Virus record (IMG/VR): IMGVR_UViG_3300013113_000534
Coordinates: 1-64,000 of that record
Direction: 5' to 3' (one strand)
Source: a virus
Length of the DNA stretch: 64,000 nucleotides
This document shows, piece after piece, positions 3,920 through 22,915 of the stretch. The notes under the pieces were generated by a model that saw only the letters and a list, made by a program, of their open reading frames with translations, did no database searches and had not been told where the DNA came from. Numbering within the stretch: the stretch's first letter is position 1; the number at the start of each line of letters is the position of its first letter. The position numbers and the translations under genes are program-made.

Positions 3920-4099
3920 TCAACTGGCTTCGCCAGTGCCTCCACGGTGGGCGTTCTCCTTACAAAAAATAGGGTTAGCATCTGGCTCAATATCAAGCGT
4001 GTCATCTGCAAACTCGCAATGAAAAACCCTTGTGTATCCGTCCCCCTCCATATTACCCCCACAGTTAGGGCAGCAGAAGGATATTAGTTGTTCGTTCAT
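3920..4099 (-). CDS. Small zinc-ribbon-like protein (59 aa)
   Basis: This short frame starts at ATG 4099, overlapping the stop of the Hsp100 gene by the ATGA arrangement seen along the operon. The protein begins MNEQLISFCCPNCGG and has a second possible ligand set (FHCEF, FCKEN), so it is probably a small zinc ribbon. It would be the last gene of the replication operon. The 3' end carries a perfect inverted repeat, so the last codons (TGEAS) are encoded by a hairpin. Function unknown. Confidence 0.6.
   Translation of the reverse strand: MNEQLISFCCPNCGGNMEGDGYTRVFHCEFADDTLDIEPDANPIFCKENAHRGGTGEAS
3923..3937. repeat. Mini-hairpin with GAA loop at the end of the replication operon
   Basis: Perfect 6-bp stem ACTGGC-TTC-GCCAGT, overlapping the final codons of the zinc-ribbon-like gene. 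No clear T-run follows on the minus strand. It may act in mRNA processing or weak termination. Confidence 0.5.
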
Positions 4100-6378
4100 A
4101 CTTTAATTTTGTTAAGGTTTATTTCGGAGCAGTTTTCCGTGATTTTCTCGCAAATGAACTTATTAATATAAGTATCAAACCTTTCCTCAAAGTCAACTAG
4201 ATTTTTAGAGGAACGAGCGAACTTCTTTAAGAAGTCCAAGGTGAATGTCACTTCAATGTTGTTTAAACGTAGATCATTATTGATCTTTCGGAGCTTGTTG
4301 TAAAGGATTCTAAAAATATCCTTCTTTTTAACCTTCTGCAATAATACATTGCAGTCAACCAGAGATAATAATTCTTTAAAAATCGATGAGGTTGGAGACT
4401 CTTTGTCAGAATTAAAGCCCATTGATGAAGAATTCTCTACTCCGCTAGTTACAAAAATTTTGACGTTGGAAAAATCAGCTATGTCTCCATTGGACATTTG
4501 TAGCTTCCCGTCTTTGAGTATTTGAGCAAATAGGCTCTTAACAGACGGGTGTAGTTTGTGGAAGTCATCAATAATAATGACGCTATTAGGATGAATATTA
4601 ATCTTCTCACATAAAGAAGTGTTGTTCATGATTTCTGGTAAGATTTTAAACTTAGCGAACTCATCTGAGAAATGAACTCCACTGTAGTCTAAGACATTCA
4701 CCCCACTCTTTTCCAAAGAATCCTTCAAGGTAGAGCAGAAAAAACTTTTGCCCGTAGACTCTTCACCAGTAATGCAATAAATACTTGGGACTGAACTTTT
4801 TTTATGTATCCCGTAGCTTGAAAGTGATATTGATTCAATAAGAGAATCGATAATTTTATTATTACCCACAAACTTTTCTTTTAAGCTGAGAGATAGGTCT
4901 GATAGAATATTCGGCTTCCGTAAAGGGTTTTCCTTCTTGGAGAAGAACTCCTTCAAGTGTTTTACTGTAACATCCGGCAATGATTCTTCTTTTTCGCTTA
5001 CCCAAGAAGATAGTTGATCTGTAACGAAAGAAAGAACAGAGTCTGCGTCATTAAGGTCGATATCTTTTTCTTTGATATTTTCTTTAATTTCTTTAAGAGA
5101 GGAATCTTGACCCCAATGAGAAACTTTTGCTTGTGCTCCACAATGATCAATAACATCAATAGCTTTGTCTGGATAAAACTTATTTGGGAGGTATTTCTCA
5201 CAAAAGTTAATGACGTTATTTAAGAAGTTCTCCGTGTAACGAACGTAATGAAACTCTTCGTAATACGAGGCGATAACGGGTAATATCTCCTGCATCTGAA
5301 ACTTGGAAGGCTCCTTAATAATAACCCTTTCAAAACGACGATCTAGAGCAGTGTCTTTTTTAATCGTCTTGGTATATTCATTAATTGTAGTCGCCCCAAT
5401 ACAACTTATAGTGCCTCTTGCTAATTCTGGCTTGAGTATATTTGAAGCTTCCAAAGAGTTCTCTGTTGTCCCTCCTGCTCCCACCAAAGTGTGAATTTCG
5501 TCTATGAAAAGGATAATGTTATCGTATTTTTTAACCTCATCTACAAACTTTTCTAGCCTCTCTTCGAACTGTCCCCTGTATTGAGTTCCAGCGACCATGC
5601 TTGATAAACTCAAAGAGTAAATCACCTTATTGGCAATAAGTTCTGGAGCTTCCCCATTAACAATCTTAGAAGCTAACCCCTCAATCAAAGAGGTTTTGCC
5701 TGTTCCTGCTGGCCCTACTAAAATCGCGTTAGGCTTTTTCTTCCTACAGAGGATCGTGGCTATCTCTGATATTTTATCATCAAAGTCAACAACCTTGTCA
5801 AACTCATCACGGGAAGCTTTTAAGTTTAAGTTCTCCGCAAATTCATCTAGGATCTTATTTTCGTCAAACATCCCGATCCAGTTTCCCATAGGGGGATTGG
5901 GATCATCGCTTTCGAAATCAAATTCCATTTTTGGCTCTTCCTCATCTTTCAAGAAAAAAGAAATATCAGTAATTAGATGATTACGATCATCTGCGTTAAA
6001 AACTTCTGCTAAAGCCTTTGGAGTGTAATCATCGCTCAACATGCATAAAAGCATTGACTCCATGCTTATGTAATCTAACCCAAAAAGCTCTTTCTGGATA
6101 AACTCGCAATGATCGATAAGCTGAGATAGTTTGTTTGAATACTGTCTAGAAACCTCCTTATTTGGTTTTTTATTTTTAATAACATTTTTTGCAGCTATAT
6201 CAAGTGCCTTAATGCTATCATATCTTCCTAAAATGGTTTCACATGACAAGCTTATGTCATCCATGAAGCAGGAAAAGAAAATATCTAAATCGACTTTGTT
6301 TCTCCCAAGATGTTCAGTTAAGTCTTGGGAGTTTTTTAATATAGAGGTTAGTTGAGGAGTAAAGGGCAAGTCATTCAT
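4096..6378 (-). CDS. ClpA/ClpC-like Hsp100 AAA+ unfoldase
   Basis: A 760-residue two-ring AAA+ protein. The N-terminal 120 residues resemble a divergent Clp_N domain (FTPQLTSIL near the start). D1 has Walker A GPAGTGKT at 222-229, pore loop GTQYRG at about 264-269, and Walker B ILFIDEIHTL at about 289-298. D2 has Walker A GEESTGKS at 538-545, but its Walker B reads IIIDDF, where the catalytic Glu of the usual DE pair is Asp. The linker between rings lacks the long ClpB coiled coil, so ClpA/C type fits better. I see no ClpP-binding IGF/L loop. It closes the overlapping replication operon, starting within the polymerase stop (ATGA). It may remodel replisome, virion or host proteins; the partner is unknown. 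Confidence 0.88.
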   Translation of the reverse strand: MNDLPFTPQLTSILKNSQDLTEHLGRNKVDLDIFFSCFMDDISLSCETILGRYDSIKALDIAAKNVIKNKKPNKEVSRQYSNKLSQLIDHCEFIQKELFGLDYISMESMLLCMLSDDYTPKALAEVFNADDRNHLITDISFFLKDEEEPKMEFDFESDDPNPPMGNWIGMFDENKILDEFAENLNLKASRDEFDKVVDFDDKISEIATILCRKKKPNAILVGPAGTGKTSLIEGLASKIVNGEAPELIANKVIYSLSLSSMVAGTQYRGQFEERLEKFVDEVKKYDNIILFIDEIHTLVGAGGTTENSLEASNILKPELARGTISCIGATTINEYTKTIKKDTALDRRFERVIIKEPSKFQMQEILPVIASYYEEFHYVRYTENFLNNVINFCEKYLPNKFYPDKAIDVIDHCGAQAKVSHWGQDSSLKEIKENIKEKDIDLNDADSVLSFVTDQLSSWVSEKEESLPDVTVKHLKEFFSKKENPLRKPNILSDLSLSLKEKFVGNNKIIDSLIESISLSSYGIHKKSSVPSIYCITGEESTGKSFFCSTLKDSLEKSGVNVLDYSGVHFSDEFAKFKILPEIMNNTSLCEKINIHPNSVIIIDDFHKLHPSVKSLFAQILKDGKLQMSNGDIADFSNVKIFVTSGVENSSSMGFNSDKESPTSSIFKELLSLVDCNVLLQKVKKKDIFRILYNKLRKINNDLRLNNIEVTFTLDFLKKFARSSKNLVDFEERFDTYINKFICEKITENCSEINLNKIKV

Positions 6379-8936
6379 TTTTTCTTAAGATCCATTAGTT
6401 TCATCATGATTTTAGTATCTACAACCCTTGCTGAGTCTACGAAATTACTACCACGACCTTTGCTTGCGTTCAAGATCAAAATACAGTCTTTTGAAACTTT
6501 ATATTGATCAAGGAAGTCTGAAAGAGTCTCAGACCTTGAGTTATCCATCATTAGAAAGCTAGCTGAAGCAGTATTATCTGAACCCTCAATAAGCATATAC
6601 TTATTCCCATTTTGGGATATTCTTATGAAGAAATCTTTAACTTGACAAACGGTTTTGAACTTAGAGTTCTCTGGGATCTCATCCAATTCTTTTAGGCAAC
6701 TCATTGAGCCAAACTCGTCTTCAAAGCAGTCCTTCAAATCAAAAGAATAACTGTAGCCTAATAAACTGTTTTCATACCACCAGTTAGAGAACTTACGATA
6801 TGGTTTATTCTTGTCAAAAATTTCTTTATAATTCTTGAACTTCTTTTTAAACGTCTCAAACCTAGACTCCTTCATTATTGGGCGACCATCATCGGCAATG
6901 GCCTTAGCTTCAATGACTTTAGATATTGCATGTAAAATATCGTCACCAAACCTGTCTTTAAAAAGAATAAAATTCCTCTTCTCTCTATCGGTCAAGATAT
7001 TGAATGCTTGAGCCTCTAGAACCAAACGACTCCTTTTGTCTGTAGCCTCTCCCATAGCTCCAGCTTGGATTAGGGCCACTAAGACAGAAATGTTAATGCC
7101 ACAACTTTTCGCAGCGGAGAAAACATCATACTTGCTAGAAAACCCATCAGAACCTTTGAAATATATAAGGCTCTCAATCGACTTCGCTGAAATGCCTTTA
7201 ATGCTGTTCAGACCATATCTGATATTGTCCCCTTCAATAGAAAAATTCATTTCTGATTTAAACAAGTTAGGCGGCAGAAGTTTAATGCCGAAATGATCTA
7301 ATTCTTGGTGGACAGAAGCGACAACCGCCAAGGGATCTGGATCAAACTCAGATGACTCAAGGACAGACAAGAAGAACTCTCTAGGATACTTATACTTCAG
7401 GTAAACCGTCTTGGCTGCTAACTCAGCGTAAGCAAAACTGTGAGACTTGTTAAAAGAGTAATCTGCTGAAGCTTGGAGAGCACTCCAATAGAAATCACTA
7501 ATCTGACTATCTAATCCCAAATCTTCTGCGGCTTGATAAATCCTATCCCTCCACTTAGGCATCTCATCAGCCTTCTTTTTACCAACAATTCGACGAAGAG
7601 TTTCTGCCTCTTCTAGGGTCAAACCGAAAACCTTATTAGCAATCTGCATCAACTGCTCTTGATACAAGATAACGTTTTTAGACCAAGATAGAATTTCATC
7701 TAGCTCCTCATGAAGGTCGCTTGATTGAGGAGCTTGTTTTTGTCGAATATATTCATCAACAAATTGCAAAGCCCCCGGTCTAGCAAGAGCTACAACGTCA
7801 GAAAGTTCATTTAAATTGTCTGGCTTAACGTCTTGGCAAACCCTAAAGTTTGTATTAGCAGAAATCTGAAATAAGCCCTCTGGATGGTTGTAATCCTGAA
7901 GCTTCTCGTATATGAACCCATCATTGGGGTCAACGTCATCTATATTGATTCCAATTTTGTCGCAAGTCCTGTGAGCAATAGTTAGAGTTCTAAGACCAAG
8001 GATATCGAACTTAACCATAAGGTCAGCGACATCGTGCATATTGTAACCTGTTATCAGGTCTCCATCTTTAGTTTTTTGTAGAGGTACAACATCTCCTATT
8101 GATTGGGAGCAAATAGCAATGCCAGATGGATGGACTCCCGTGTTTTTGATTAAATTTTCTATCTTCTTAGCGTTGATAAAAGTCCTGTTATGTTTTTTCA
8201 CCCAATGATCAAACTTCTCATTCTCTTCTCTCGCGTTCTCCAAAGAAGATACTTTGCCATGAAGCTTTGGAATCATATCGCTAACCGCATTGGCTTGATC
8301 CTCCTTAGCCTCATCAAAATACTTGGTTGCCTCCCTAATGCAAAGTTTAGAGCTGAAAGTATTGAAGGTTAGAATCTTCGCCGTCCTGCCCTCATGTTTT
8401 TCTTCAATATATTGAATAACTTTCTGCCTTTGCTCATAACTAATGTCTGAATCAACATCAGGGAGAAGGCTACCAACAAGAAACTCTTTGTTCCTCTTAT
8501 CGTAAACTTTTTTAGCACGACTCTTAGAAACAAAACGCTCAAAGAATAAGTTGTGAGGGATGGGATCAATATTGGTTACCCCAAGTAAATACAAAACTAA
8601 AGAACCAGCAGCGGAGCCACGACCAGCTCCAGTAGGAATATTGTTTTCGTGACAGAAGTTTAGAACATCCCAGTTCAACAAAATATAATCTGTGAATCCA
8701 AGCTCTTCAAAAGTTTCTAGCTCTTGTTTAGCGCGATCAAAATATTCTTTTTTGTTCTCATATTTAGTAATCCCCTTATCCCGTAAGCCTTTACGGGTAA
8801 GCTCATACATAATCTCTTTGGTTGAGCTTTCTTTATCAAGACCAATGCTGTTCAAAACAGCTTCGCTAACCGAAGTTTTTGGCAGCTCCACACCAAGTGG
8901 CTCACAATCATCGTAAACAGAAAAGTCTTCAAACAT
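6375..8936 (-). CDS. dnaE: DNA polymerase III alpha, catalytic core without PHP domain
   Basis: An 853-residue family C DNA polymerase. It starts at ATG 8936, which overlaps the exonuclease stop as TGATG; the GTG one codon earlier is less likely. Conserved palm elements are present: GAGRGSAAGS at about 103-112, PDVDSD at 159-164 (matching the E. coli PDFDVD active-site strand) and KFDILGLRTLT with Asp at about 311. Finger motifs (NKSHSFAYAELA) and a C-terminal OB-like region follow. It should therefore be an active replicase. The N-terminal PHP domain that normally opens DnaE is absent and is encoded by a separate upstream gene (9537-10238), with a proofreading exonuclease gene between them. 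No clamp or clamp loader is seen, so host clamp use is likely. Confidence 0.93.
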   Translation of the reverse strand: MFEDFSVYDDCEPLGVELPKTSVSEAVLNSIGLDKESSTKEIMYELTRKGLRDKGITKYENKKEYFDRAKQELETFEELGFTDYILLNWDVLNFCHENNIPTGAGRGSAAGSLVLYLLGVTNIDPIPHNLFFERFVSKSRAKKVYDKRNKEFLVGSLLPDVDSDISYEQRQKVIQYIEEKHEGRTAKILTFNTFSSKLCIREATKYFDEAKEDQANAVSDMIPKLHGKVSSLENAREENEKFDHWVKKHNRTFINAKKIENLIKNTGVHPSGIAICSQSIGDVVPLQKTKDGDLITGYNMHDVADLMVKFDILGLRTLTIAHRTCDKIGINIDDVDPNDGFIYEKLQDYNHPEGLFQISANTNFRVCQDVKPDNLNELSDVVALARPGALQFVDEYIRQKQAPQSSDLHEELDEILSWSKNVILYQEQLMQIANKVFGLTLEEAETLRRIVGKKKADEMPKWRDRIYQAAEDLGLDSQISDFYWSALQASADYSFNKSHSFAYAELAAKTVYLKYKYPREFFLSVLESSEFDPDPLAVVASVHQELDHFGIKLLPPNLFKSEMNFSIEGDNIRYGLNSIKGISAKSIESLIYFKGSDGFSSKYDVFSAAKSCGINISVLVALIQAGAMGEATDKRSRLVLEAQAFNILTDREKRNFILFKDRFGDDILHAISKVIEAKAIADDGRPIMKESRFETFKKKFKNYKEIFDKNKPYRKFSNWWYENSLLGYSYSFDLKDCFEDEFGSMSCLKELDEIPENSKFKTVCQVKDFFIRISQNGNKYMLIEGSDNTASASFLMMDNSRSETLSDFLDQYKVSKDCILILNASKGRGSNFVDSARVVDTKIMMKLMDLKKK

Positions 8937-9550
8937 CACAAATTCATTTCTTTTTTAAGTGCAGAAAAAACCTTAAAGCACATCTTATTATCATACAAGG
9001 CATCATGTAATTTATCTTCCTCAAACTCAATGCCAAAGAATTTAAGTAGCTGGTTTTGAGACACTCTTGCCTTGAGGGATCGGTCATGGATTATTTTATA
9101 CTGCCAACTCAACAAATCTTTCTTGGGCTTGTCCAAATCCTCTCTGTAAGCCTTGCCAAAAGCTCTAGTGTCATAAATTCTATTGAGATACGAATAATCA
9201 GGAGTTTCTCCCAATAACCTTTGCATCCCAGCTACCATGTAGACATCGAATCCTAGAAGGTTCTGGCCAACAATTTTATATTCTGGGTTAAATAAATCAG
9301 CCTTGAAGTCGGCCCAAACTTTCTTCAAAGGTTCTTTTCTTTCGTTATACTCATCCCAAGTAAAACCAGTAAGGCGCTCTACTATTTTATTTATTTGTAG
9401 ATCCTTGTGACTAATATACCTATCATTCTCTTTAATTACCCTGTTGCCTTGGCAGATCAACCATGAAACCTGCCAAGTGCGAGAAGAATGTAGATTAAGA
9501 CCTTCAGTTTCCGTATCGAAAACTAAATATTTTTGATTATGTGGTAGCAT
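8936..9550 (-). CDS. DnaQ-like 3'-5' proofreading exonuclease
   Basis: A 204-residue DEDDh exonuclease. Exo I is FDTETEGL at about 10-17, Exo II contains GQNLLGFDVYM at about 95-105, and Exo III is HDALYDN near 183-189, giving the four acidic ligands plus the catalytic His. This family removes misincorporated nucleotides during replication. It overlaps the PHP-domain gene by 14 bases and the polymerase by one base, so the three are translated as a set. The order PHP, exonuclease, polymerase follows the domain order of PolC-type polymerases, but here as three separate proteins. Proofreading partner of the split polymerase is a strong inference from position. Confidence 0.9.
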   Translation of the reverse strand: MLPHNQKYLVFDTETEGLNLHSSRTWQVSWLICQGNRVIKENDRYISHKDLQINKIVERLTGFTWDEYNERKEPLKKVWADFKADLFNPEYKIVGQNLLGFDVYMVAGMQRLLGETPDYSYLNRIYDTRAFGKAYREDLDKPKKDLLSWQYKIIHDRSLKARVSQNQLLKFFGIEFEEDKLHDALYDNKMCFKVFSALKKEMNL

Positions 9551-10238
9551 CTTTGTAGGACTCCCAGCAGAACTCGTCTGAGCAGAAGTGATTTATGTTT
9601 GGGTTTTGGAAAGTTGGAGATTTGCCTCCAGATCTATTACAAGTCGCTTTATACATTTGTAAAGCGGCAAATTCATCTTTATTGTGATGTACGATTGTCT
9701 TGACTGCTTGCGTCTTAACTCCAAGATCATCAATAACAGATTTGATTTGAAAATCAAAGGGGTGGTTATTATCTTCAATGAAGTAAACTGGGTCTAAGTG
9801 CTCAATATCTATATGGGATAGCCCAAAATTAAATAAATTATTAAAAACGTACGAGTCATAAAAGGGGACGCACACTTTAAGATTCTTGAAATCTTCTTTT
9901 TTATATTCAGATAGAATTAAAGATTTGCAGTCATTCAAGGATGCGCTTGAATACATCTTCTTTAAATCCTTTATGCCCTGATTATTTTTTGCAAAGAGAA
10001 CTAATTTGCTAGCCTTTTCATTTTCATCAACTCCATTATTAATAACGGGAATCCTAAGACCAAATACTAAATCAATATTTTCCTCTTGAAAGAGGTTGTT
10101 AAATATTCTAAAGCCATAAAAGCTATCTTCAACTAAGATAACGCGATCCAAAGAGTTGAGCTTTGCAATATCCAATATTTTCTCTGCGGTCAGAATAGAT
10201 TTACCTATACTAAACTGGCTCTTAAAGAGAGGTATCAT
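9537..10238 (-). CDS. Stand-alone PHP-domain protein, detached N-terminus of DnaE
   Basis: A 233-residue protein that lines up with the N-terminal PHP domain of DnaE: FSIGKSILTAEKILDIAKL, then VILVEDSFYGF, then FGLRIPV, and near the end KTIVHHNKDEFAALQMYKAT matching the conserved HYL-x2-DAEAH-x-LL region. The metal ligands are largely lost: the usual H-S-D-Y-S reads KSQFS and the TDH motif reads VEDS. A catalytic phosphoesterase or proofreading role is therefore unlikely and a structural role in the polymerase is probable. The gene precedes the exonuclease and polymerase genes with overlap. I recognise it by order and motif spacing; a profile search would settle it. Confidence 0.75.
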   Translation of the reverse strand: MIPLFKSQFSIGKSILTAEKILDIAKLNSLDRVILVEDSFYGFRIFNNLFQEENIDLVFGLRIPVINNGVDENEKASKLVLFAKNNQGIKDLKKMYSSASLNDCKSLILSEYKKEDFKNLKVCVPFYDSYVFNNLFNFGLSHIDIEHLDPVYFIEDNNHPFDFQIKSVIDDLGVKTQAVKTIVHHNKDEFAALQMYKATCNRSGGKSPTFQNPNINHFCSDEFCWESYKDATT

Positions 10239-10247
10239 GCAGGAATC

Positions 10248-11294
10248 CTAAAGGAGGTCGCTTGGGCTGTCAAACGAAAAAGATGGGCAACCTGAATATT
10301 TTTTCTTCTCAATACGTGTTCCTACTCCTTCGTCAAGCATAACTTGTAAATCTTCTTTATTGTAAGATGACTTGATGAACTTGTCCTTTTCTCCAAGCAA
10401 ATGGTAGTAATCGAACGGGAACTTGAATGGGCAGTGCCACATCAAATCTCCATTCTTTTTTAATTGGCCTACATGAGTAGCTCTACCGCAAACAATTTTA
10501 CCAGCAAAACCATCTTCCTTTGCTGGATAACCTTTATCCCAAGCAAGGCCACTGACCGCAGTCTTTTCACTGAAATTGTTTATAACCTGCTGTACATCCG
10601 TCAAAAAATATTCAAAACCTTCTAGGTCTAATTCATCTAACGGCTCCATCGCCATAAGCCCCTCCCCATTCAAATCAAACTTTAAGAATAAGAACTCCAT
10701 GCGCCTCTTGAGGTATTCTGGATACAAATACTTAACAGCGAGGCAATACATATAATCCTGCATGTTGTCTGTATACTCCTTCCCTTCGAAAACATTTTTC
10801 GAGGTTTTAAAGTCTCGGATTATAGCTGTTTTTTTTCTTTTAAAAAGAAATAGCTTATCGATAAATCCAAGTATTCGATAATTCTTATCTCCTTCGTTTA
10901 CGGATATGTCAAAATCTTTCTCAGAAATAGCTTCTGTCGGTTTTCCGTCTGTGTCTCCAAAAAAATCAAAATTAAGACCCTCAACTGTCATCTTGTTGAT
11001 TAGATCCATATTTTCAAAATCGTCTATCTCATACTTTTTGGCGTAAGCTTCCACCATCCTCTTAATTGGAAGACTAGCGTTTATATCTTGAGCTTTAATG
11101 ATAGCTCTATAATGCTTCCTATGCCTAGGATTACCCAAGTTCTCGAAAACAGCATGGCAGATTGTCCCACGCAAAGACCCATGATTAGATTTGTCTGGTA
11201 GACGCAAATGATACTTGGCCCAATATTGCCAAGTGCAAGTTTGCATTGTTTTTATGCGTGATGCTGAGAGAGGTTTGTTTTCAGATTTCTCCAT
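10248..11294 (-). CDS. RecB/Cas4-like PD-(D/E)XK exonuclease
   Basis: A 348-residue nuclease. I chose ATG 11294 (MEKSENKPLSASRIK), which overlaps the primase stop by 14 bases; an in-frame start further upstream would overlap it by 77. N-terminal LSASRIKTMQTCTWQYW is the classic start of PD-(D/E)XK exonucleases, and His in GTICHAVFENL follows. The core is GFIDKLFLF then AIIRDFKTSK (D...DxK) at about 170-185, and MQDYMYCLAV matches the QxxxY motif. Cas4-type iron-sulfur cysteines are possible (one near the N-terminus, CGRATH and CPF near the C-terminus) but not proven. It likely processes DNA ends for RecA-type recombination. It sits between primase and polymerase genes. Confidence 0.85.
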   Translation of the reverse strand: MEKSENKPLSASRIKTMQTCTWQYWAKYHLRLPDKSNHGSLRGTICHAVFENLGNPRHRKHYRAIIKAQDINASLPIKRMVEAYAKKYEIDDFENMDLINKMTVEGLNFDFFGDTDGKPTEAISEKDFDISVNEGDKNYRILGFIDKLFLFKRKKTAIIRDFKTSKNVFEGKEYTDNMQDYMYCLAVKYLYPEYLKRRMEFLFLKFDLNGEGLMAMEPLDELDLEGFEYFLTDVQQVINNFSEKTAVSGLAWDKGYPAKEDGFAGKIVCGRATHVGQLKKNGDLMWHCPFKFPFDYYHLLGEKDKFIKSSYNKEDLQVMLDEGVGTRIEKKKYSGCPSFSFDSPSDLL

Positions 11295-12330
11295 AATGGA
11301 AGTCGTATTTTTTTTCGAACTTCCGTAAATTAGAAGTAAATGTTTTATTGACTCCACGTTTATTCATCTCTTTAGCGAAATCAATAACGTTAGTCATTGT
11401 TTCATTATGCTTGATTGACGCACAATATTCAACATATTTATTTATTTGTTCTTTATCCATGTCTCCGAAATCATTTTCTGGAGGTGGAGAAAAAAATACT
11501 TTATCGAAATCAATTTGATCGCAGAGTTTAAATATAGACTTAATTGAACCTTCAAATCCCCTATTGGAACCTGAATTAAAATCATTATTAAATGCAACAA
11601 AAATTTTATCTAAAGGCAAGCCATGTAGCTTAGATATAAATTTAGGTGAAATGTTAAGGCCAAAAGAAACAAGAACATTTTTAACTCCAGCATCGAACAA
11701 TGAGATGCAATCTCCAATCGACTCTACAATATAGACACTGCGACTCTCTTCAATAGCAGTACGAACTTCATCAATTGTATAATATGGATAGAACCAATCA
11801 GAACACCTCCCATTGTGCAACCATTTGGGTCTAGGGTCATCTGTTACCTTTCGGCCTGAAAAGCCATGTATCCTCCCGTCAGGGCGGCAAATGGGGAATA
11901 TGACTCGCTGATACATTTTTCCAGACATCGCCAAGCCGCACTTGAACTTCTTCAAAGTGTCTTCTGATATCCCCCTATTCAAATAAAAGTCATAATGAGG
12001 TAGCAAGCGATTTAAACAAGAATCTGGATATGTTTTTTCTTCATTCAAAAGGTTTTTTTGAGCAGAACGTTCATATATGTTTACACTATTACTCTTCAAG
12101 TAAGAGCTTAAAATACTCTTGTCATTAGTATTCAAAGTTTTCTGAAGCAAAGCTTCAAAGGGAAGAAACATGGAGTCTTCCACATAATCCTTCCAGACTC
12201 CCGTGTCTTTATAAATCTGTAGTGCTGTAGAATTATCACCAGACCTGTACACGGCACTGGTTCTCCAATAAGAGCCATGATCTTTTAGGCGATAGCCAAG
12301 GTCTTCTAAAACAGACTTGTAATCGGTCAT
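11281..12330 (-). CDS. dnaG: DnaG-type primase
   Basis: A 349-residue primase. The catalytic core has RVIFPICRPDGRIHGFSGR at about 143-161, as in DnaG, and a Toprim domain with VYIVESIGDCISLFDAG (conserved Glu and following Asp) and VAFNNDFNSGSN as the acidic motif. The N-terminal 60 residues occupy the place of the DnaG zinc-binding domain (TGVWKDYVED) but contain no Cys ligands, so that domain looks degenerate and may not recognise a trinucleotide in the usual way. The C-terminus lacks an obvious helicase-binding domain. The start overlaps the helicase stop (ATGA), consistent with primase and helicase being made together. Confidence 0.88.
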   Translation of the reverse strand: MTDYKSVLEDLGYRLKDHGSYWRTSAVYRSGDNSTALQIYKDTGVWKDYVEDSMFLPFEALLQKTLNTNDKSILSSYLKSNSVNIYERSAQKNLLNEEKTYPDSCLNRLLPHYDFYLNRGISEDTLKKFKCGLAMSGKMYQRVIFPICRPDGRIHGFSGRKVTDDPRPKWLHNGRCSDWFYPYYTIDEVRTAIEESRSVYIVESIGDCISLFDAGVKNVLVSFGLNISPKFISKLHGLPLDKIFVAFNNDFNSGSNRGFEGSIKSIFKLCDQIDFDKVFFSPPPENDFGDMDKEQINKYVEYCASIKHNETMTNVIDFAKEMNKRGVNKTFTSNLRKFEKKYDFHYGEI

Positions 12331-13874
12331 TCTGAAAGAGTGATTGGGATGTCATCGCTTTCGCTACTCGACTCCAAATTAACATCGACATTATTAACAG
12401 AATTAACAATATCTTGCAAGTCTCCTCGTTCTTCGATCCTGAAGTTTTGAATATTCAAGTTTATGAAATTCTTGCGATTAGAGCCATCTGGCATTTCTAT
12501 AGGATTAATGTCACGAAGAGGGTTTTTGCCTAGGTGACGAGCTTTAAGATTCACTAATTTATGCGTTCCAAACCTATCTCCATCTTCATGGATTTCATCT
12601 GCAACCTTCCTCCTCAACAAAAACAAATGAGAGCAGAATTGAGTAATACCATCAGAAAGAGAAACCACACTTTCATCATCGATTATGGAATCTGCTCCCC
12701 TGTTGCCTGTAATCCCAAGCCTATTTGCCTGAACAGAAGTCATCATTGAAACGCAAGGCTTGCCATCAAAACACAAATCCCTATGAATCGTTTGTTTGAA
12801 CAAATGAACCATTGAAGCAACTTGTTGCCAACCATCGTTTTTTCCAAGGTTGTTGAAGTCCGTTTTAATGTAATCAAAGCTAAAAATCATTCTATTCCCC
12901 CTGCCAACTTTAGAATAGTAATACCTCTTTAGGTAAGAGCACATTTCTTCAGCAGACATTCCAGCGACATTCACATAATAAAACTGCATATTGCCAGACT
13001 TTATCTTCTTCCAAGTGTCGCGTACCCTCGCCACGACTTCTTCGACAGACCAATTCTTGTAACTAGAAGTCCTCCACTTTCCACTCTGCAATAGATAAAC
13101 GGGTATACCGCTCATCGCAGAACATTGACGAAAAGTAAGCTCTTCTTCGCTCATCTCACCATTATCAAAGTGTAAGACGGGGATATTATATTTAGCTCCA
13201 GTTCTTGTTGTATAATCCATGCAGAACTGAGTCTTTCCTACGCCAGAACGAGCAACAATAACAGAGATGTTACCCTCTAGAAGTAGAGATCCGTAAATCT
13301 CGTTTATTCTTTCATGTGGCCCCATTAATCCAGATTCTTCAACAGGGTTATTCCCTCTGTCTTCAACCAAATCTTCCATCATGTCAAAAAGATTAATTGG
13401 CCCGTCATCAGTAAACTCAAACTCTTTAATATTTTTGTTATAAATCTCGTCAGCTTTATCTATAATTTCTGAATATTTTGCATCAGGATCGACTTTTTTG
13501 ACGTAAGCAGCTACATCCCTTGCGGAAAGATAAATCTCTCTACGAGCAGAAAACTTTTTCAACTCCTTTACTGAAGAAATAAAGATATCTTCTGTTATCT
13601 TATGGTAAACAAGAGAGCGGATATATTCTGGTAGGTCGATGCTGTCTGGAAAACTTACCTTTAGTTGCTCCAATCTTGGAATGAGAATAGTGTCATCAAT
13701 TGACTCTGCGTTATTCAATGCATTCCGAATCAATTTGAAAATAGAAAGATGAACCTGAGAGTCATCACTAAAGAAATCCTTCTCATTGAGAAATACTGAA
13801 ACTTCAGCCCACTTGTGAGGGTGCTGTAGAAGACCCTTCAATACAGTCTTCTCTAAATCCATGCTAGATATCAT
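12327..13874 (-). CDS. dnaB: DnaB-type replicative helicase
   Basis: A 515-residue RecA-fold helicase. The N-terminal 110 residues match the DnaB N-domain (EKTVLKGLLQHPHKW, VFLNEKDFFSDD). The motor has Walker A ARSGVGKTQF at about 208-217, the FDNGEMSEEEL segment matching DnaB (LEM) motif H1a, and a Walker B-like MIFSFDYIK. The C-terminus is a long acidic Ser-rich tail ending ESSSESDDIPITLSE. It unwinds the replication fork ahead of the split polymerase. Start at ATG 13874 or four codons later; the first overlaps the upstream gene by ATGA. The acidic tail ending in hydrophobic residues could dock a partner (speculative). Confidence 0.9.
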   Translation of the reverse strand: MISSMDLEKTVLKGLLQHPHKWAEVSVFLNEKDFFSDDSQVHLSIFKLIRNALNNAESIDDTILIPRLEQLKVSFPDSIDLPEYIRSLVYHKITEDIFISSVKELKKFSARREIYLSARDVAAYVKKVDPDAKYSEIIDKADEIYNKNIKEFEFTDDGPINLFDMMEDLVEDRGNNPVEESGLMGPHERINEIYGSLLLEGNISVIVARSGVGKTQFCMDYTTRTGAKYNIPVLHFDNGEMSEEELTFRQCSAMSGIPVYLLQSGKWRTSSYKNWSVEEVVARVRDTWKKIKSGNMQFYYVNVAGMSAEEMCSYLKRYYYSKVGRGNRMIFSFDYIKTDFNNLGKNDGWQQVASMVHLFKQTIHRDLCFDGKPCVSMMTSVQANRLGITGNRGADSIIDDESVVSLSDGITQFCSHLFLLRRKVADEIHEDGDRFGTHKLVNLKARHLGKNPLRDINPIEMPDGSNRKNFINLNIQNFRIEERGDLQDIVNSVNNVDVNLESSSESDDIPITLSE

Positions 13875-14092
13875 CGATTACCCCCCTCATCCAAAGAAAT
13901 TTCTACCAACTTACTCAAAGCCATATCAACACAAGTATTTTCTGTCTTGGTTGCAAAAGTGGGTTGACCCACATCATTAATATAATATAAGAAAAATCCT
14001 TTATTCCCTCCACCTACAGAACCCGTGCAATCAAAAAGCTTTGTTAGAATGCTATGAGGTAAAGTATTGTCTGTTTTGTCAAAATGATTCAT
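13871..14092 (-). CDS. Small hypothetical protein in the replication operon
   Basis: A 73-residue protein with no family I recognise. A Gly-rich patch (GSVGGGNKGFFLYYIND) sits in the middle and an acidic C-terminus follows. It overlaps both neighbours by four bases (ATGA), lying between a nuclease and the replicative helicase. Position suggests a helicase accessory or loader role, but size and sequence do not establish it. Confidence 0.65.
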   Translation of the reverse strand: MNHFDKTDNTLPHSILTKLFDCTGSVGGGNKGFFLYYINDVGQPTFATKTENTCVDMALSKLVEISLDEGGNR

Positions 14093-14496
14093 ATAATATC
14101 CAGTGTTCTTAGAAGCTCCTCGTCAATAGTATCCCTTTCCAGTATTCTGACAAGCTTAATTTGATTAATTTCGCAAAAATACTCTTTTTTCTCATCTCTC
14201 TGTAATTGAGAAAGGAAATTTTGCCTAGAGTTTGAGTGGAAAAACTTGTTGTATTTGTAATGTTGATTGCCATCCACCTCTACTGCAAGTTTTTTATTTG
14301 CATTGTAAAAGTCTAAAGTCATTCTTGTCCCAAGAACGGGAAGCTCCTCAAAAACAACATCAGAAACCCAATTTGAGTACAAAAGATCTTTAACTTTTTT
14401 TTGAAGCTTGCTGCGACACTTTTTGTCCCAATCAATTAAATACTTTGTAGAGTTTTTGAGCTTTTGTTCTCGACCAGTTGTCGTTAAAAAGATCAT
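14089..14496 (-). CDS. Small PD-(D/E)XK (DUF559/Vsr-like) endonuclease
   Basis: A 135-residue protein with the core of a single-domain restriction-fold nuclease. MTLDFYNANKKLAVEVDGNQHYKYN at about 59-83 gives the D-x(n)-E-x-D catalytic pattern followed by the QH typical of DUF559 and Vsr-like enzymes. A later basic region is QLQRDEKKEYFCE and KLVRILE. It may be a Holliday-junction or mismatch-type endonuclease acting with the RecA homologue encoded just upstream, which it overlaps by four bases. The family is fairly clear; the exact substrate is not. Confidence 0.78.
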   Translation of the reverse strand: MIFLTTTGREQKLKNSTKYLIDWDKKCRSKLQKKVKDLLYSNWVSDVVFEELPVLGTRMTLDFYNANKKLAVEVDGNQHYKYNKFFHSNSRQNFLSQLQRDEKKEYFCEINQIKLVRILERDTIDEELLRTLDII

Positions 14497-16079: not shown

Positions 16080-17069
16080 TTAATTCTTGTCAACAGATAA
16101 TTCATTAATCCAGTAAGAAACCATATCTGCAACCAAGCCTTTGAAGTCAAATTCTGGCTCCCAATTAAGAGCTTTTCTAGCTCTAGACGAGTCGCCCTTT
16201 AGTTTTTTCAACTCTTCTGGCCTATAAAACTTCGGATCGCTCTTAACAAAATCCTTGTAATCTAGGTCAACAAAACCAAATGCTTCCTCGCAGAAGTCCC
16301 TAACAGAATGAGTCTGCATTGAAGAAATAACAAAATCTTCTGGTTCGTGGTGCTGCAAGATAGAGTGCATTGCTTTTACATAATCTTTAGAATGACCCCA
16401 GTCCCTATAAGATTCTAAATTTCCTAGAACCAAATCCTCCTGTAATCCCAAGTGGATTGCTGCTACAGCTTTAGCTATTTTTGCAGTAACAAAGTTTTCT
16501 CCCCTACGAGGGGACTCGTGATTAAATAAAATGCCGTTAGAAGCAAACAAATTATAAGAATTACGATAATTTCTTACGATACAATGAGCAGCTAACTTAG
16601 AACACCCATAAGGACTAACAGGCTTCATTTGGGTAGTTTCTCTTTGAAACCCATCTTCATCGATCTCATTACCGAACATCTCAGAAGAACTCGCTTGATA
16701 AAATTTAGCTTCTGGGCAACAGAAACGATATGCTTCAAGCATGTTCAGAGTTCCTATCATATTTGTTTGCAAAGTAAATTGAGGAACATCAAAGCTGACT
16801 CTAACGTGGCTTTGAGCTGCAAGATTGTAAATCTCATCTGGTCGAATGAGACCCATCAAACGATTTATAGAGGAGTTATCTAAAAGATCAGCATAATCAG
16901 TTTTAACTAGACCTTTGCTGACTAGATGATCAACCCTAGTTTCTTGAGTGCTAGCTAGAGAATGCCGCCTAATAAATCCATAAACTTCGTAATCTTTTTC
17001 TAAGAGTAACTCTGCCAAGTAACTTCCGTCTTGACCTGAGATGCCAGTAATAAGAGCTTTTTTCTTCAT
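16080..17069 (-). CDS. gmd: GDP-mannose 4,6-dehydratase
   Basis: A 329-residue short-chain dehydrogenase with all Gmd hallmarks: GISGQDGSYLAELLLEK, RRHSLASTQET, AAQSHVRVSFD, catalytic SSEMFGN and YGCSKLAAH (YxxxK), and NHESPRRGENFVTAKI. It makes GDP-4-keto-6-deoxy-mannose, precursor of GDP-fucose, perosamine and rhamnose. The neighbouring DegT-type aminotransferase could yield a GDP-perosamine-like sugar, and the GT11 downstream would use GDP-fucose. No GDP-fucose synthase was found, so that route needs a host enzyme. First gene of the ten-gene sugar cassette, 20 bases from the zinc-ribbon gene of the replication operon. Confidence 0.95.
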   Translation of the reverse strand: MKKKALITGISGQDGSYLAELLLEKDYEVYGFIRRHSLASTQETRVDHLVSKGLVKTDYADLLDNSSINRLMGLIRPDEIYNLAAQSHVRVSFDVPQFTLQTNMIGTLNMLEAYRFCCPEAKFYQASSSEMFGNEIDEDGFQRETTQMKPVSPYGCSKLAAHCIVRNYRNSYNLFASNGILFNHESPRRGENFVTAKIAKAVAAIHLGLQEDLVLGNLESYRDWGHSKDYVKAMHSILQHHEPEDFVISSMQTHSVRDFCEEAFGFVDLDYKDFVKSDPKFYRPEELKKLKGDSSRARKALNWEPEFDFKGLVADMVSYWINELSVDKN

Positions 17070-17075
17070 GCCTTA

Positions 17076-17660
17076 TTATAGAAAAACTTTCATCTTTGTC
17101 AAGTCTGGCCAATCATTTATAACCCATTTTTTGGGTTTAGTATTAATAGCGTCCTCTAATTTATCTAACCCTATTTGAGCTGTCTCTGGGGTCATGTAAT
17201 AATGATACCCAAAACTAGATATGTCCTGATCTCTCCAAGGGACATCTGGCAACCTTCCATCATAAGACATTTTCTTTAAATCTTCGGAGGCTTGTTTGTT
17301 GTCGGTTAGAATCATACCACCTCTCCCAAGACTAAGATGTTTTTGAAATTGGAAGCTCAAACACATAAATGTGTTTGGGACATAACTACCCTTGCGCCAA
17401 AGAACTGCTGCATCAGCAATATTTGTCCCTTCAATAAAATAGTAATCTTGCCATGACTCTTCCTTCCATTTGAGTGGAATACCTAATTTATTTGCTAAAA
17501 AAGGAACTGAAATATATGTTCTCTTAGGAACGCAAAGCTCTTTAATTTTTTGCATTCTCAAACAAAGTTCCAAGCCATGTGTGCAGCTATCTACAGCTAC
17601 AGCATACTTAGCTCCGAAAAACTTAGCCACCTTATCCTCAAAGTCTTTTACTTGCTTCAT
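17076..17660 (-). CDS. Compact DegT/DnrJ/EryC1-family aminotransferase
   Basis: A 194-residue PLP enzyme of the sugar aminotransferase family. FGAKYAVAVDSCTHGLELCL matches the substrate-binding N-region, NIADAAVLW the PLP-contacting Asp, and SFQFQKHLSLGRGGMI the Lys that forms the Schiff base. GYHYYMTPETAQIGLDKLE is the following family helix. The usual length is about 370 residues; here the C-terminal domain and part of the core are absent, yet the frame is intact and tightly packed, so it looks like a naturally small form rather than a broken gene. A 4-amino-6-deoxy sugar from the Gmd product is the likely output (inference). Activity of such a short form is uncertain. Confidence 0.8.
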   Translation of the reverse strand: MKQVKDFEDKVAKFFGAKYAVAVDSCTHGLELCLRMQKIKELCVPKRTYISVPFLANKLGIPLKWKEESWQDYYFIEGTNIADAAVLWRKGSYVPNTFMCLSFQFQKHLSLGRGGMILTDNKQASEDLKKMSYDGRLPDVPWRDQDISSFGYHYYMTPETAQIGLDKLEDAINTKPKKWVINDWPDLTKMKVFL

Positions 17661-18292
17661 TCTAAGGTTTTATTTTTAAGAAGAATATTATGGCCATACT
17701 TTCCAAGGAACTCAAAATTATCTAAAGTTTCAAGAATCCATTTGGTATTTACTTGCCCTTCCCAAAGTTCTGTATCAAAACACTCTGTGTAAAAGTATCT
17801 TGTTTTGTTTTGAAGGGTTTCGATAGCCCCCAGAATCATTTCTTCTTCCGCTCCATTCACATCACACCAGATAAAATCTATAATACTTTCTCCAATATTT
17901 TCTTGAGACCAAGAGTCTAATTTAACACACTCTACTTTATCTGGATCTGTTTTAAATGAAACAGTTGGGTAGTTTCTCAAATGATTTAATGGTTTTTTAA
18001 GAGAGCTTGATAAAGACCAACGTTTCCCGCTATTGGTTTGGCTAGGATACCAATCAATATAACCATCTTCTTTACCTACCGCCTTTTCTACTAAAACAAT
18101 TTTTTCTGGATGATCTAAATCTTTAAAATGTTGAATTGATGTCGGATCAGCTTCAAAGGCATAAATTTCCGCTTGAGGCATTAACTTTAACATTTCAAGA
18201 CTATCTTCACCATCATAAGACCCAACCTCCAATATGATAGGATCATTCTTGCCAATAAGATCTTTTATTAAATTTTTCGTTAACTTGTCCAT
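17657..18292 (-). CDS. FkbM-family methyltransferase
   Basis: A 211-residue SAM-dependent methyltransferase. IILEVGSYDGEDSL is the SAM motif I, IYAFEADPTSIQHF motif II, and IDFIWCDVNGAEEEMILGA matches the FkbM signature DxxGxE. The family O-methylates sugars and other hydroxyl groups on glycans. It overlaps the DegT gene by four bases and the next methyltransferase by 13, within the glycan cassette. Likely modifies a surface or virion glycan. Confidence 0.88.
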   Translation of the reverse strand: MDKLTKNLIKDLIGKNDPIILEVGSYDGEDSLEMLKLMPQAEIYAFEADPTSIQHFKDLDHPEKIVLVEKAVGKEDGYIDWYPSQTNSGKRWSLSSSLKKPLNHLRNYPTVSFKTDPDKVECVKLDSWSQENIGESIIDFIWCDVNGAEEEMILGAIETLQNKTRYFYTECFDTELWEGQVNTKWILETLDNFEFLGKYGHNILLKNKTLE

Positions 18293-18837
18293 TTTTTACA
18301 TTCTACATTTAAACTTATTAAGGTTCCATTATCTTTGTCCATATGGGGCAAATACGCTTGAGAGCAATCATCAATATGAGAATGATCCGTATCCCTCCAA
18401 TTATAACGCTTAACAGAATTAAATCCAATTTCCTCACTAAGAATCTTACTTATTGAATCAAAGTCGTAGACTGTCTTGTGATAAATTATTTTATCTGACA
18501 TTACCATCTTGCCATACAAAGGCCCAAGAAATCTATCTAATGGATACTCTCCATCTTGATACAGTCTAGACATAACATCGAAATCTGGAACAGCTAATCG
18601 AAGAGTCCCCCCTTTTTTAAGAACCCTTTTCCATTCAGATAAAATCTCTAAAGCTTCTTGTCTATCGAAATATTCTAAAACGTGGGAAGCGTAAATAACA
18701 TCTACAGAATTTGATTCCCAACGTAAATTAGTAATAGAGTTAAATTTCAAATCCAAGTGATCGTAGTCACCAGAATCAATATGAATCCATTCATCTCCAA
18801 AGTTGGTAGGGCCGCAGCCTAAATTTAACTTAATCAT
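18280..18837 (-). CDS. SAM-dependent methyltransferase (type 11-like)
   Basis: A 185-residue class I methyltransferase. LNLGCGPTNFGDEWIHID is motif I with the following acidic residue, VDVIYASHVLEYF motif IV, and LKKGGTLRLAVPDFD motif VI, typical of Methyltransf_11/23 proteins linked to sugar clusters. The 3' part (YNWRDTDHSHIDDCSQAYLPH) is typical of cassette-borne glycan methyltransferases. Overlaps both neighbours by 8 to 13 bases. Substrate unknown. Confidence 0.85.
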   Translation of the reverse strand: MIKLNLGCGPTNFGDEWIHIDSGDYDHLDLKFNSITNLRWESNSVDVIYASHVLEYFDRQEALEILSEWKRVLKKGGTLRLAVPDFDVMSRLYQDGEYPLDRFLGPLYGKMVMSDKIIYHKTVYDFDSISKILSEEIGFNSVKRYNWRDTDHSHIDDCSQAYLPHMDKDNGTLISLNVECKKWTS

Positions 18838-19243
18838 TAATAAATGTTTTATCTTTTGCTTGCCCCATATAAGGGCCAGTTTTTATTTCGTAAACTAGCG
18901 CACCTTCTTCAAGAGCCTGATAATTATGACCTCCTCTAAAAGTTATAGTCGCGTCACCAACCTCTAAAATGTTTTCTTCTAAGAGATTATCGTCTTCATC
19001 ATAATGGAATGTTTTGACTTTACCTTTAACAACCACCCAACATTCTTGGGTGATGTTTGTTTCTCTAGGAAGAGTTAGGTGTTTGTGTCCCCGAAATTTA
19101 TGGTTATCTGGGATTTTAATTGCAGCAAGTTGCAAGAATTCAGACTCATCCGAAATATCCTCTCTAAAATCTAGGTCTTCTAGTTCTGATAATCTGTAGA
19201 TGATGTGCAATACATCCCCATTTTTATTTTTTATTTTTTTCAT
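18830..19243 (-). CDS. Cupin-fold protein of the sugar cassette
   Basis: A 137-residue single cupin domain. RGHKHLTLPRETNITQECW is a cupin-1 like motif with His ligands, VVKGKVKTFHYDEDD the sheet that follows, and GDATITFRGGHNYQALEEG the cupin-2 motif with a second His. Related proteins in O-antigen loci are WbuC/FdtA-like and act on nucleotide sugars or regulate them. The catalytic role here is not proven. It overlaps the methyltransferase and fucosyltransferase genes. Confidence 0.75.
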   Translation of the reverse strand: MKKIKNKNGDVLHIIYRLSELEDLDFREDISDESEFLQLAAIKIPDNHKFRGHKHLTLPRETNITQECWVVVKGKVKTFHYDEDDNLLEENILEVGDATITFRGGHNYQALEEGALVYEIKTGPYMGQAKDKTFIND

Positions 19244-20022
19244 ATCCTTATCCAGTCCTCTGGGAATATTTCCGCGCTTTTGCTCTTAAACCAATTATCA
19301 GGGTAAACAATTGCCTTGTCCACATTTTTATTTAAAAAAGCCCCCCACCAAGAGAATGTAGAATTCGCTATTATATTGTCAGAACAAGCCGACATGCAAT
19401 ACAAATCTATGAACGCATCCTCTTGAGTTGGGAAACATACAAATCTTTCTGAATCGAAATTGTCTTTAATCCATTCATAGTCATCAGAAAATACCAAAAA
19501 TTTACGATTTGGGAATTGATCGACAGCTTTATTATAATAGTCCATTGTTTGAACGGGGTGCTGGTCTATTTTTAGATAATCTCCCCTCCTTACATGAATA
19601 GAAACAAAATCTTTAGCTTCTACTCCAAGTTTTTCTAGAACTAAAAGTGATTGTTCAATTATGGAGTCCTTGAATTCAATATTTTTTTTATCGTCCAAAT
19701 TAAAGAATCTTCGATTCTGAAAATACCCAGTAAAATTAGTGTCATCTTTGATATTAAAAACATCTTCATCGAAAACATTATCCTGATGTTCTCTGTAAAT
19801 ATACTTCAAATGCTTGCTAATCTCATCTACTGGCATCTTATCTATATCAATATTAAAGCCAGATTCTAATTGTTGTATCCTTTGGCCAGAGTGATGCATA
19901 AACTCCTGAGAAACTGGATAAATAGGCTTGTAACCAGTCTTATCTGCAACCGTAAGTAAGAAATAATAATTAAAAAGAGCGTTTCCAATAGCTCTATTCG
20001 AAATATCTAAACAAGTAATCAT
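19240..20022 (-). CDS. GT11 alpha-1,2-fucosyltransferase
   Basis: A 260-residue glycosyltransferase with GT11 motifs: GNALFNYYFLLTVADKTG at the N-terminus, FTGYFQNRRFF in the middle, SIHVRRGDYLK (motif I that binds GDP-fucose) at about 134-144, and NSTFSWWGAFLN near 224-235. The family moves L-fucose from GDP-fucose to galactose. GDP-fucose supply would begin with the nearby Gmd. Overlaps the cupin gene by four bases. Confidence 0.92.
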   Translation of the reverse strand: MITCLDISNRAIGNALFNYYFLLTVADKTGYKPIYPVSQEFMHHSGQRIQQLESGFNIDIDKMPVDEISKHLKYIYREHQDNVFDEDVFNIKDDTNFTGYFQNRRFFNLDDKKNIEFKDSIIEQSLLVLEKLGVEAKDFVSIHVRRGDYLKIDQHPVQTMDYYNKAVDQFPNRKFLVFSDDYEWIKDNFDSERFVCFPTQEDAFIDLYCMSACSDNIIANSTFSWWGAFLNKNVDKAIVYPDNWFKSKSAEIFPEDWIRI

Positions 20023-20023
20023 A

Positions 20024-20704
20024 CTAAATATCTAAAAATGAATTTTTAATTACAACATCTCTATTAGAAAATTTTCCATCTATATCTGAATGATTATCAT
20101 ATTGAGATGCATAAATAAATTTTGGGCTAAAAAAATTAAAATTAAAACCTTGAAACTTCAACCAATGATCATAACAAATGTTCTCTTTTTGCCATTCAAC
20201 CCATGATGTCATATCATAGCTTTTAGGGAAAAGATTTTCATCCAAAAATTTAGCAAACTCTAAAGAATAAGTAATTGCATGAGCAGAACCCGCAGAATTC
20301 ACTTTATACAAAGTGTCTGAATGATTTTCTGCACCTCTCTTGTTTTTATCTGGGATGTAGACGGAACCGCTTTTTTGTAAAACACAACCCCAATAAAATA
20401 AATCAAAATTTTCTGGCAGAGAATCGTGAGATATAATAAAATCTTCTGTTTTTGATTCGTCAAAAACTACATCATCTTCAAAAATAGTGAATTTGGTAGA
20501 GCCATGTTGTATTGCTTTTCTGATTGCTTTAGCATGGGAAGCGGAACAGGCAGCTTTATTATAAGAAACATTGTCTTTACTAAATTTTATAGCTTCTATT
20601 CTATCGCAACCATCGACGAATAAACTTCGAACTTTTTTAAACTCACTTGAAAAACTTTCCAGCCTGTCTTTTCTAGATTCAAGGTTAATGTAATAGGATT
20701 TCAT
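20024..20704 (-). CDS. GT25-family LPS glycosyltransferase
   Basis: A 226-residue protein with the GT25 pattern: SYYINLESRKDRLESF at the N-terminus, ACSASHAKAIRKAIQHG (GCxxSH-like), and FTIFEDDVVF, the ED-D metal/nucleotide motif. The C-terminal part has SYDMTSWVEWQKENICYDHW. The family adds galactose or related sugars to LPS cores. It starts inside the upstream propeller gene (20 bases of overlap). Donor and acceptor unknown. Confidence 0.85.
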   Translation of the reverse strand: MKSYYINLESRKDRLESFSSEFKKVRSLFVDGCDRIEAIKFSKDNVSYNKAACSASHAKAIRKAIQHGSTKFTIFEDDVVFDESKTEDFIISHDSLPENFDLFYWGCVLQKSGSVYIPDKNKRGAENHSDTLYKVNSAGSAHAITYSLEFAKFLDENLFPKSYDMTSWVEWQKENICYDHWLKFQGFNFNFFSPKFIYASQYDNHSDIDGKFSNRDVVIKNSFLDI

Positions 20705-22893: not shown

Positions 22894-22915
22894 CGATATA
22901 AGTCACTTCAAAGTT

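What the first reader, a model, noticed from the sequence alone, without database searches (positions are those of the whole stretch)
6375..10238. DNA polymerase III alpha split into PHP and polymerase genes with a DnaQ exonuclease gene between them
The 233-residue protein at 9537-10238 matches the DnaE PHP domain and the 853-residue protein at 6375-8936 starts exactly where the polymerase palm begins. A DEDDh exonuclease (8936-9550) lies between them. Overlaps of 14 and 1 bases couple all three. The order PHP, exonuclease, polymerase mirrors PolC, where the exonuclease is built into the PHP domain, but here the parts are three proteins. The PHP metal ligands look lost (KSQFS for HSDYS, VEDS for TDH), while the polymerase acids (PDVDSD, KFDILG) are kept. 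Either a polymerase gene broke open around an exonuclease, or this is a modular replicase. I know of phage DnaE genes but not this arrangement.
Basis: partly seen in the sequence, partly recalled or inferred. Interest (0 to 1): 0.8.

Follow-up and report, generated by a model that had tools for sequence, protein, structure and literature searches.

The report
Phage replicase split into three genes
In a large group of uncultured aquatic phages, the DNA-copying enzyme that bacteria make as one long protein is encoded as a separate scaffold domain and a separate polymerase, with a proofreading nuclease gene between them, and this arrangement is old, stable and probably works as a three-part enzyme.

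Summary
The 233-aa protein is a complete PHP domain (AlphaFold model aligned to E. coli Pol III alpha residues 6-248, Z 21.5). The 853-aa protein is the rest of a DnaE-type alpha subunit (aligned from about residue 270 on). A DEDDh exonuclease gene lies between them. The break is nearly seamless, at about alpha residue 255.

It is not a wreck. The order PHP > exonuclease > polymerase holds in all 96 non-identical complete loci first compared, and in nearly all uncut loci of later scans. PHP is under purifying selection (dN/dS about 0.05-0.07). Each of 17 records over 57 kb checked for all three genes has one of each. In the tree all split polymerases form one group (100/99) on a long stem; outside it DnaEs are almost all fused. 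All nine PHP metal-ligand positions are replaced, mostly by near-invariant residues (K, E, D, R/K, K, F, S/T).

Best reading: a heteromeric family-C replicase whose catalytically dead PHP protein acts in trans as scaffold for polymerase and proofreader. Complex formation is inferred, not shown. The PolC parallel is loose. A different split of phage Pol III alpha was already described (PMC7824862), so this is a new variant of a known kind.

The parts
9537..10238 (-). Standalone PHP domain of a Pol III alpha subunit (233 aa), metal site replaced
   Evidence: Pfam PHP 5e-7, phrog_405 6.7e-12; AF2 model matches E. coli alpha 6-248, Z 21.5, 225 aligned, rmsd 3.1; ligand positions
8936..9550 (-). 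DEDDh (DnaQ-type) 3'-5' exonuclease, 204 aa, no epsilon-like C-terminal tail
   Evidence: RNase_T 2.3e-9, phrog_192 1.3e-18; D12, E14, D102, H182, D187 invariant in 16 relatives
6375..8936 (-). Pol III alpha polymerase body without PHP (palm, thumb, fingers, HhH, OB), 853 aa
   Evidence: PF07733 3.6e-61, PF17657 3.9e-34, PF14579 2.5e-18; D160, D162, D311 invariant; AF2 model vs T. aquaticus alpha 283-1123, Z 34.9
9537..9550 (-). 14-base overlap of PHP stop and exonuclease start
   Evidence: the same -14 in 40 of 96 non-identical loci
8936..8936 (-). 1-base overlap of exonuclease stop and polymerase ATG
   Evidence: -1 or -4 in 76 of 96 loci
12327..13874 (-). DnaB-like replicative helicase, same operon
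   Evidence: phrog_19 5.5e-31
11281..12330 (-). DnaG-like primase, same operon
   Evidence: phrog_47 1.1e-23
10248..11357 (-). PDDEXK nuclease directly upstream of PHP
   Evidence: PF12705 8.4e-15
4096..6378 (-). ClpA-like double AAA+ protein directly downstream of polymerase
   Evidence: AAA 2.2e-20, AAA_lid_9 3.7e-19; phrog_4871 2.5e-108

Best explanation
This is a C-family (DnaE-type) phage replicase core made of three polypeptides. The alpha subunit was split once, in the linker between PHP and palm (about E. coli residue 255), in the ancestor of a large clade of uncultured tailed phages, and a DnaQ-type exonuclease gene sits at the break. The three proteins are made from overlapping genes and, most likely, assemble as PHP + exonuclease + polymerase. 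The polymerase keeps its catalytic acids and copies DNA; the exonuclease keeps all DEDDh residues and proofreads; the PHP protein has no metal site and acts in trans as a scaffold that buttresses the palm and holds the exonuclease. Shown: gene anatomy, predicted folds, conserved order, single copy, purifying selection, one group in the tree, replaced metal site. Inferred: that the proteins bind each other, that the PHP protein is needed for activity, and that the exonuclease proofreads for this polymerase.
For: Complementary, nearly seamless halves. Order PHP > exo > pol in 96 of 96 non-identical complete loci and in 132 further loci as php|exo|pol, the exceptions being edge cuts, intein breaks or outgroups. 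Each of 17 records over 57 kb checked for all three holds one PHP, one exo and one pol (pol in two pieces in G022), also in G014 where pol lies about 8 kb from exo. dN/dS about 0.05-0.07 for PHP, 0.02-0.06 for exo and pol in most comparisons. Split polymerases form one group, support 100/99, stem 1.74, with all 12 sampled fused DnaEs outside; a sharp gap from 41% or more identity (split) to about 30% (fused) in IMG/VR. Exonuclease and polymerase catalytic residues invariant. Metal ligands replaced by near-invariant residues in 111 PHPs, fitting a structural role. In E. coli a metal-free PHP domain stabilises alpha and its mutation lowers activity (PMC3666897), and PHP binds the proofreader (PMC3919608).
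Against: No direct evidence of a complex; complexes could not be modelled here. The exonuclease lacks the C-terminal tail by which E. coli epsilon binds PHP, so docking must differ if it occurs. PHP evolves faster than its neighbours. One relative with PHP and polymerase on a 31-kb fragment (G015) has no detectable exonuclease.
Confidence: 0.78

Rival explanations
1. The PHP protein was released from polymerase duty and does something else (for example binds nucleic acid or a host factor); the polymerase body works alone with the exonuclease.
For: The metal site is replaced by conserved basic and acidic residues, which could be a new binding pocket; PHP evolves faster than exo and pol.
Against: Single copy in every large record checked and always in the same order with exo and pol; whole DnaE-type PHP fold kept including its C-terminal part; in E. 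coli the domain is needed for stability and activity of alpha (PMC3666897).
Confidence: 0.12
2. The parts are joined again as one chain, by protein trans-splicing (split intein) or by ribosomal frameshifting at the overlaps.
For: Split-intein halves do occur inside the polymerase gene of some relatives (L058, L264), and LAGLIDADG ORFs lie between PHP and exo in two.
Against: No intein domain at the PHP end or polymerase start; the parts end and begin within a few residues of the conserved domain; no conserved slippery heptamer at the overlap and overlap lengths vary; in many loci other genes lie between the parts.
Confidence: 0.03
3. The modular form is ancestral and cellular DnaE arose later by fusion.
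For: The clade is deep, with a long stem, and all members are split; a similar ancestral argument was made for another split phage Pol III (PMC7824862).
Against: Nearly all other phage and bacterial DnaEs sampled are fused; a second, separate split exists in L281 with an intact metal site, so fission recurs; the dead metal site looks derived. The tree is unrooted.
Confidence: 0.04
4. Ordinary gene break or assembly artefact in one genome.
Against: Same breakpoint in about 200 independent contigs and in contigs of genome bins.
Confidence: 0.01

Closest known systems
Bacterial DNA polymerase III alpha (DnaE1) with epsilon (DnaQ), E. coli type
   Same: Same polymerase body and PHP fold, metal-free PHP, separate DEDDh proofreader
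   Different: PHP is a separate gene product; the exonuclease gene lies at the break; the exonuclease lacks the epsilon tail
Fused phage DnaE with dnaQ directly upstream (Serratia phage WR01)
   Same: DnaQ and DnaE genes overlap by one base; PHP metal ligands mostly lost
   Different: PHP and polymerase are one protein; the exonuclease gene comes before PHP, not after
PolC
   Same: Exonuclease associated with the PHP region of a C-family polymerase
   Different: In PolC the exonuclease is inside PHP in one chain; polymerase sequence and structure here are DnaE-like
Split minimal Pol III alpha of group 2.2 jumbo phages (PMC7824862)
   Same: A phage Pol III alpha encoded as two proteins
   Different: There the break is inside the polymerase module, no PHP is present, genes are far apart and a family B polymerase is also encoded
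Fractured genes with split inteins (Dassa et al. 2009, known here from a reference list and from memory)
   Same: Broken replication genes in environmental phages with homing endonuclease ORFs nearby
   Different: No intein halves at the PHP/polymerase break
L281 (IMG/VR contig 3300033149_006567)
   Same: PHP and polymerase body encoded apart
   Different: Distant lineage (about 31% identity), intact PHP metal site, no related exonuclease found; an independent fission

Membership tests
C-family DNA polymerase (Pol III alpha, DnaE type) | Palm with catalytic acids PDxDxD and KxDxLG, fingers, HhH | tested here: met
   Pfam domains; D160, D162, D311 invariant in 67 sequences
C-family DNA polymerase (Pol III alpha, DnaE type) | Overall fold of the alpha subunit body | tested here: met
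   Z 30-37 to E. coli, T. aquaticus and M. tuberculosis alpha
C-family DNA polymerase (Pol III alpha, DnaE type) | PHP domain in the same polypeptide | tested here: not met
   PHP is a separate gene here and in its clade
C-family DNA polymerase (Pol III alpha, DnaE type) | DNA polymerase activity | not testable with these tools
   needs purified protein
PHP domain of Pol III alpha | Whole DnaE-type PHP fold | tested here: met
   225 of 233 residues aligned to E. coli alpha 6-248, Z 21.5, rmsd 3.1; other PHP proteins at most Z 11.1
Active PHP exonuclease | Nine metal ligands HHDHEH[C/H]DH (PMC12926913) | tested here: not met
   window reads L K E D R K F T V; at most one acid kept, depending on a one-residue gap
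Pol III epsilon (bona fide, PMC3666897) | DEDDh catalytic residues | tested here: met
   D12, E14, D102, H182, D187 invariant
Pol III epsilon (bona fide, PMC3666897) | C-terminal tail that binds alpha | tested here: not met
   protein ends directly after the exonuclease domain (RNase_T match 9-195 of 204)
PolC | Exonuclease inserted inside the PHP domain of one chain | tested here: not met
   separate gene after a complete PHP
Split-intein fractured gene | Intein halves at the break | tested here: not met
   no intein domain in PHP or polymerase protein at E up to 1; only short linkers at the break
Split minimal Pol III of jumbo phages (PMC7824862) | Break between NTP-binding and template-binding subdomains, no PHP, distant genes | tested here: not met
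   break lies between PHP and palm; PHP present and adjacent

The most novel reading that the evidence does not exclude
A large, old phage clade replicates with a truly modular three-subunit family-C replicase in which a pseudo-enzyme PHP protein, its metal site rebuilt as a fixed cluster of charged residues, is the scaffold that joins polymerase and proofreader, and whose proofreader docks without an epsilon-type tail, a mode that I do not know from cells.
Probability: 0.5. Interest if true: 0.78.

Novelty: new variant of a known kind. Interest (0 to 1): 0.64.

Why it matters
The PHP domain is found in nearly all bacterial replicases, yet its non-enzymatic role is hard to test because it is part of the same chain. 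A natural system that supplies PHP in trans makes that role directly testable by adding or leaving out one protein. It also gives a natural case of a replicase core running as separable modules for a long time in what looks like an abundant group of aquatic phages with no cultured member found here.

Tried and rejected
tblastn of the window PHP against isolated phages found nothing, and megablast of 25 kb found no near phage; plasmids gave only partial hits to Acinetobacter dnaE. phmmer of PHP alone against PDB found nothing and its profile only weak PolC hits; the fold comparison settled it. Literature searches found no description of this arrangement in the papers held; the 2011 survey of viral replicases that I know of did not turn up there and was not read. 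Frameshift fusion: no conserved slippery site. Split intein at the break: none. Recent pseudogene: rejected by dN/dS and conservation. Bacterial-type sliding clamp: no match in the window record or in 11 long relatives; T4-type clamps were not searched, so the clamp question is open. One search call failed on a wrong kind of handle and one alignment call on a frame error that was corrected. Host: contigs of this type lie in bins named Flavobacteriaceae, Flavobacteriales, Bacteriovorax, Verrucomicrobiales and others; one Flavobacteriaceae bin also holds a normal fused DnaE; binning of phage contigs is unreliable, so the host is unknown.

Full report
WHAT IS THERE. On the - strand the window carries a replication operon: RecA/UvsX-like recombinase, an HNH-like ORF, DnaB helicase, DnaG-like primase, PDDEXK nuclease, PHP (9537-10238), DEDDh exonuclease (8936-9550), polymerase (6375-8936) and a ClpA-like AAA+ protein. 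The window is part of a 67,439-base virus record with a large terminase and ribonucleotide reductase, so a tailed phage.

FOLDS AND BREAKPOINT. The PHP model (87 sequences, mean pLDDT 89.4) aligns over all 233 residues to E. coli alpha 6-248 (Z 21.5, 225 aligned, rmsd 3.1) and T. aquaticus alpha 7-259 (Z 21.3), far above other PHP proteins (Z at most 11.1). The polymerase model (67 sequences, pLDDT 88.6) aligns to T. aquaticus alpha 283-1123 (Z 34.9) and E. coli alpha 272-910 (Z 30.5). A multiple alignment with fused DnaEs puts the break at about E. coli residue 255 with only a few residues missing. The two proteins therefore add up to one whole alpha subunit.

CONSERVATION. In the loci read, PHP, exonuclease and polymerase come in that order: 96 of 96 non-identical loci with all three complete, then 132 more as php|exo|pol, the exceptions being contig-edge cuts, intein-broken polymerases or more distant DnaEs. 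The PHP/exo overlap is 14 bases in 40 of 96 loci and the exo/pol overlap 1 or 4 bases in 76 of 96; in others one or more genes lie between, yet the order stays. Of 20 records checked with the PHP profile, 18 hold exactly one PHP; the other two are short fragments cut near the site. In each of 17 records over 57 kb checked for all three genes, PHP, exonuclease and polymerase each occur once, the polymerase of G022 being in two pieces. In G014 (57 kb) the polymerase lies about 8 kb from the exonuclease. Two relatives (L040, L058) have a LAGLIDADG endonuclease ORF between PHP and exonuclease. Pairwise dN/dS with near relatives is 0.05-0.07 for PHP (0.19 in one distant pair) and 0.02-0.06 for exonuclease and polymerase: all three are under purifying selection.

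OUTSIDE THE CLADE. No isolated phage found here carries this form: tblastn of the polymerase finds 1,346 phage records, all below 60% identity and the listed ones below 35%, and the PHP finds none. Of those opened, MA9V-3, PE1, NatB6, WR01, MTATph1, 280BB001, Navo, BcoS-136, Y1 and MT835885 have PHP and polymerase in one ORF; KKP_3916 and phiST are broken elsewhere. In IMG/VR the next DnaEs after the split clade drop to about 30% identity, and 9 of 10 of these are single ORFs of 1026-1294 aa. The tenth, L281, has a separate 317-aa PHP with all nine metal ligands and a separate 906-aa polymerase, with four ORFs between: an independent fission. In a maximum-likelihood tree the 27 split polymerases are one side of a branch with support 100/99 and length 1.74; the 12 fused ones are on the other. 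Long branches make the exact sister unsure and the tree is unrooted.

ACTIVE SITES. Polymerase: D160, D162 and D311 invariant in 67 sequences. Exonuclease: D12, E14, D102, H182, D187 invariant in 16. PHP: at the nine ligand positions of an intact phage DnaE, 111 distinct PHPs of the clade read L/V/I, K (108), E (108), D (110), R or K (110), K (110), F (111), S or T (111), Y/L. None of the histidines or the cysteine is kept; whether D38 equals the motif aspartate depends on a one-residue gap. The replacements are nearly as constant as catalytic residues, which points to a fixed charged cluster in place of the metals, most simply a structural one (inference). E. coli alpha and the fused phage DnaEs PE1 and WR01 have also lost ligands.

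HOW IT MOST LIKELY WORKS. In E. coli the metal-free PHP domain stabilises alpha, its mutation lowers activity, and loss of metal ligands goes with a separate proofreader (PMC3666897); PHP also carries the epsilon-binding site (PMC3919608). The simplest reading is that the phage supplies the same scaffold as a separate chain: PHP, exonuclease and polymerase are made together and assemble. The exonuclease lacks the epsilon tail, so it must dock in another way. Assembly, the need for PHP and proofreading are inferences; no complex was modelled.

ORIGIN. A nearer pointer is Serratia phage WR01, where a dnaQ gene overlaps the start of a fused dnaE by one base; moving from dnaQ-dnaE to PHP-dnaQ-pol would need a fission with the exonuclease gene at the break. 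That path is a guess. An ancestral modular form is not excluded but is less likely, given the repeated fissions and the dead PHP.

KNOWN OR NEW. Split phage Pol III alpha is known in another form: in group 2.2 jumbo phages the polymerase module itself is in two distant genes, without PHP and beside a family B polymerase (PMC7824862). No paper in the searched library describes a separate PHP subunit with a DnaQ gene between the parts, but the library is partial. A structure search of viral proteins finds DnaE proteins and fragments and two short viral PHP proteins at weak scores, none of them this arrangement as far as the table shows. I rate it a new variant of a known kind.

Noticed in passing
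L058:10154-13201; L264:5998-9906: Polymerase genes of two relatives are broken again by split-intein-like halves, at GRG/SAAGS and at YSFNK/SHS; in L264 an ORF with a NUMOD3 match lies between the halves.
   Followed up: partly
L040:8748-9662; L058:8749-9543: LAGLIDADG homing-endonuclease ORFs inserted between the PHP and exonuclease genes.
   Followed up: partly
L281:3152-8625: A distant phage DnaE that is also split between PHP and polymerase, with an intact PHP metal site and a metallophosphoesterase and other ORFs between.
   Followed up: partly
L178:3876-7476 (Cellulophaga phage phiST, NC_020842): The dnaE region has no annotated gene in the record and lies in two overlapping frames (526 and 677 aa), broken inside the palm.
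   Followed up: partly
window 4096-6378: A ClpA-like protein with two AAA+ domains follows the polymerase directly here and in the close relatives; its role beside a replicase is unclear.
   Followed up: no
window 14089-14496: A short HNH or homing-endonuclease-like ORF (phrog_559, DUF559) lies between the DnaB helicase and the RecA-like gene.
   Followed up: no
window 16080-23380: A block of sugar and methyl-transfer genes (epimerase, DegT aminotransferase, methyltransferases, glycosyltransferases) and an HSP20 gene.
   Followed up: no
G012 (Flavobacteriaceae bin), contigs C43, C58, C148: One bacterial bin holds a normal fused DnaE and two phage-type split polymerases on other contigs, a weak host hint.
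   Followed up: partly
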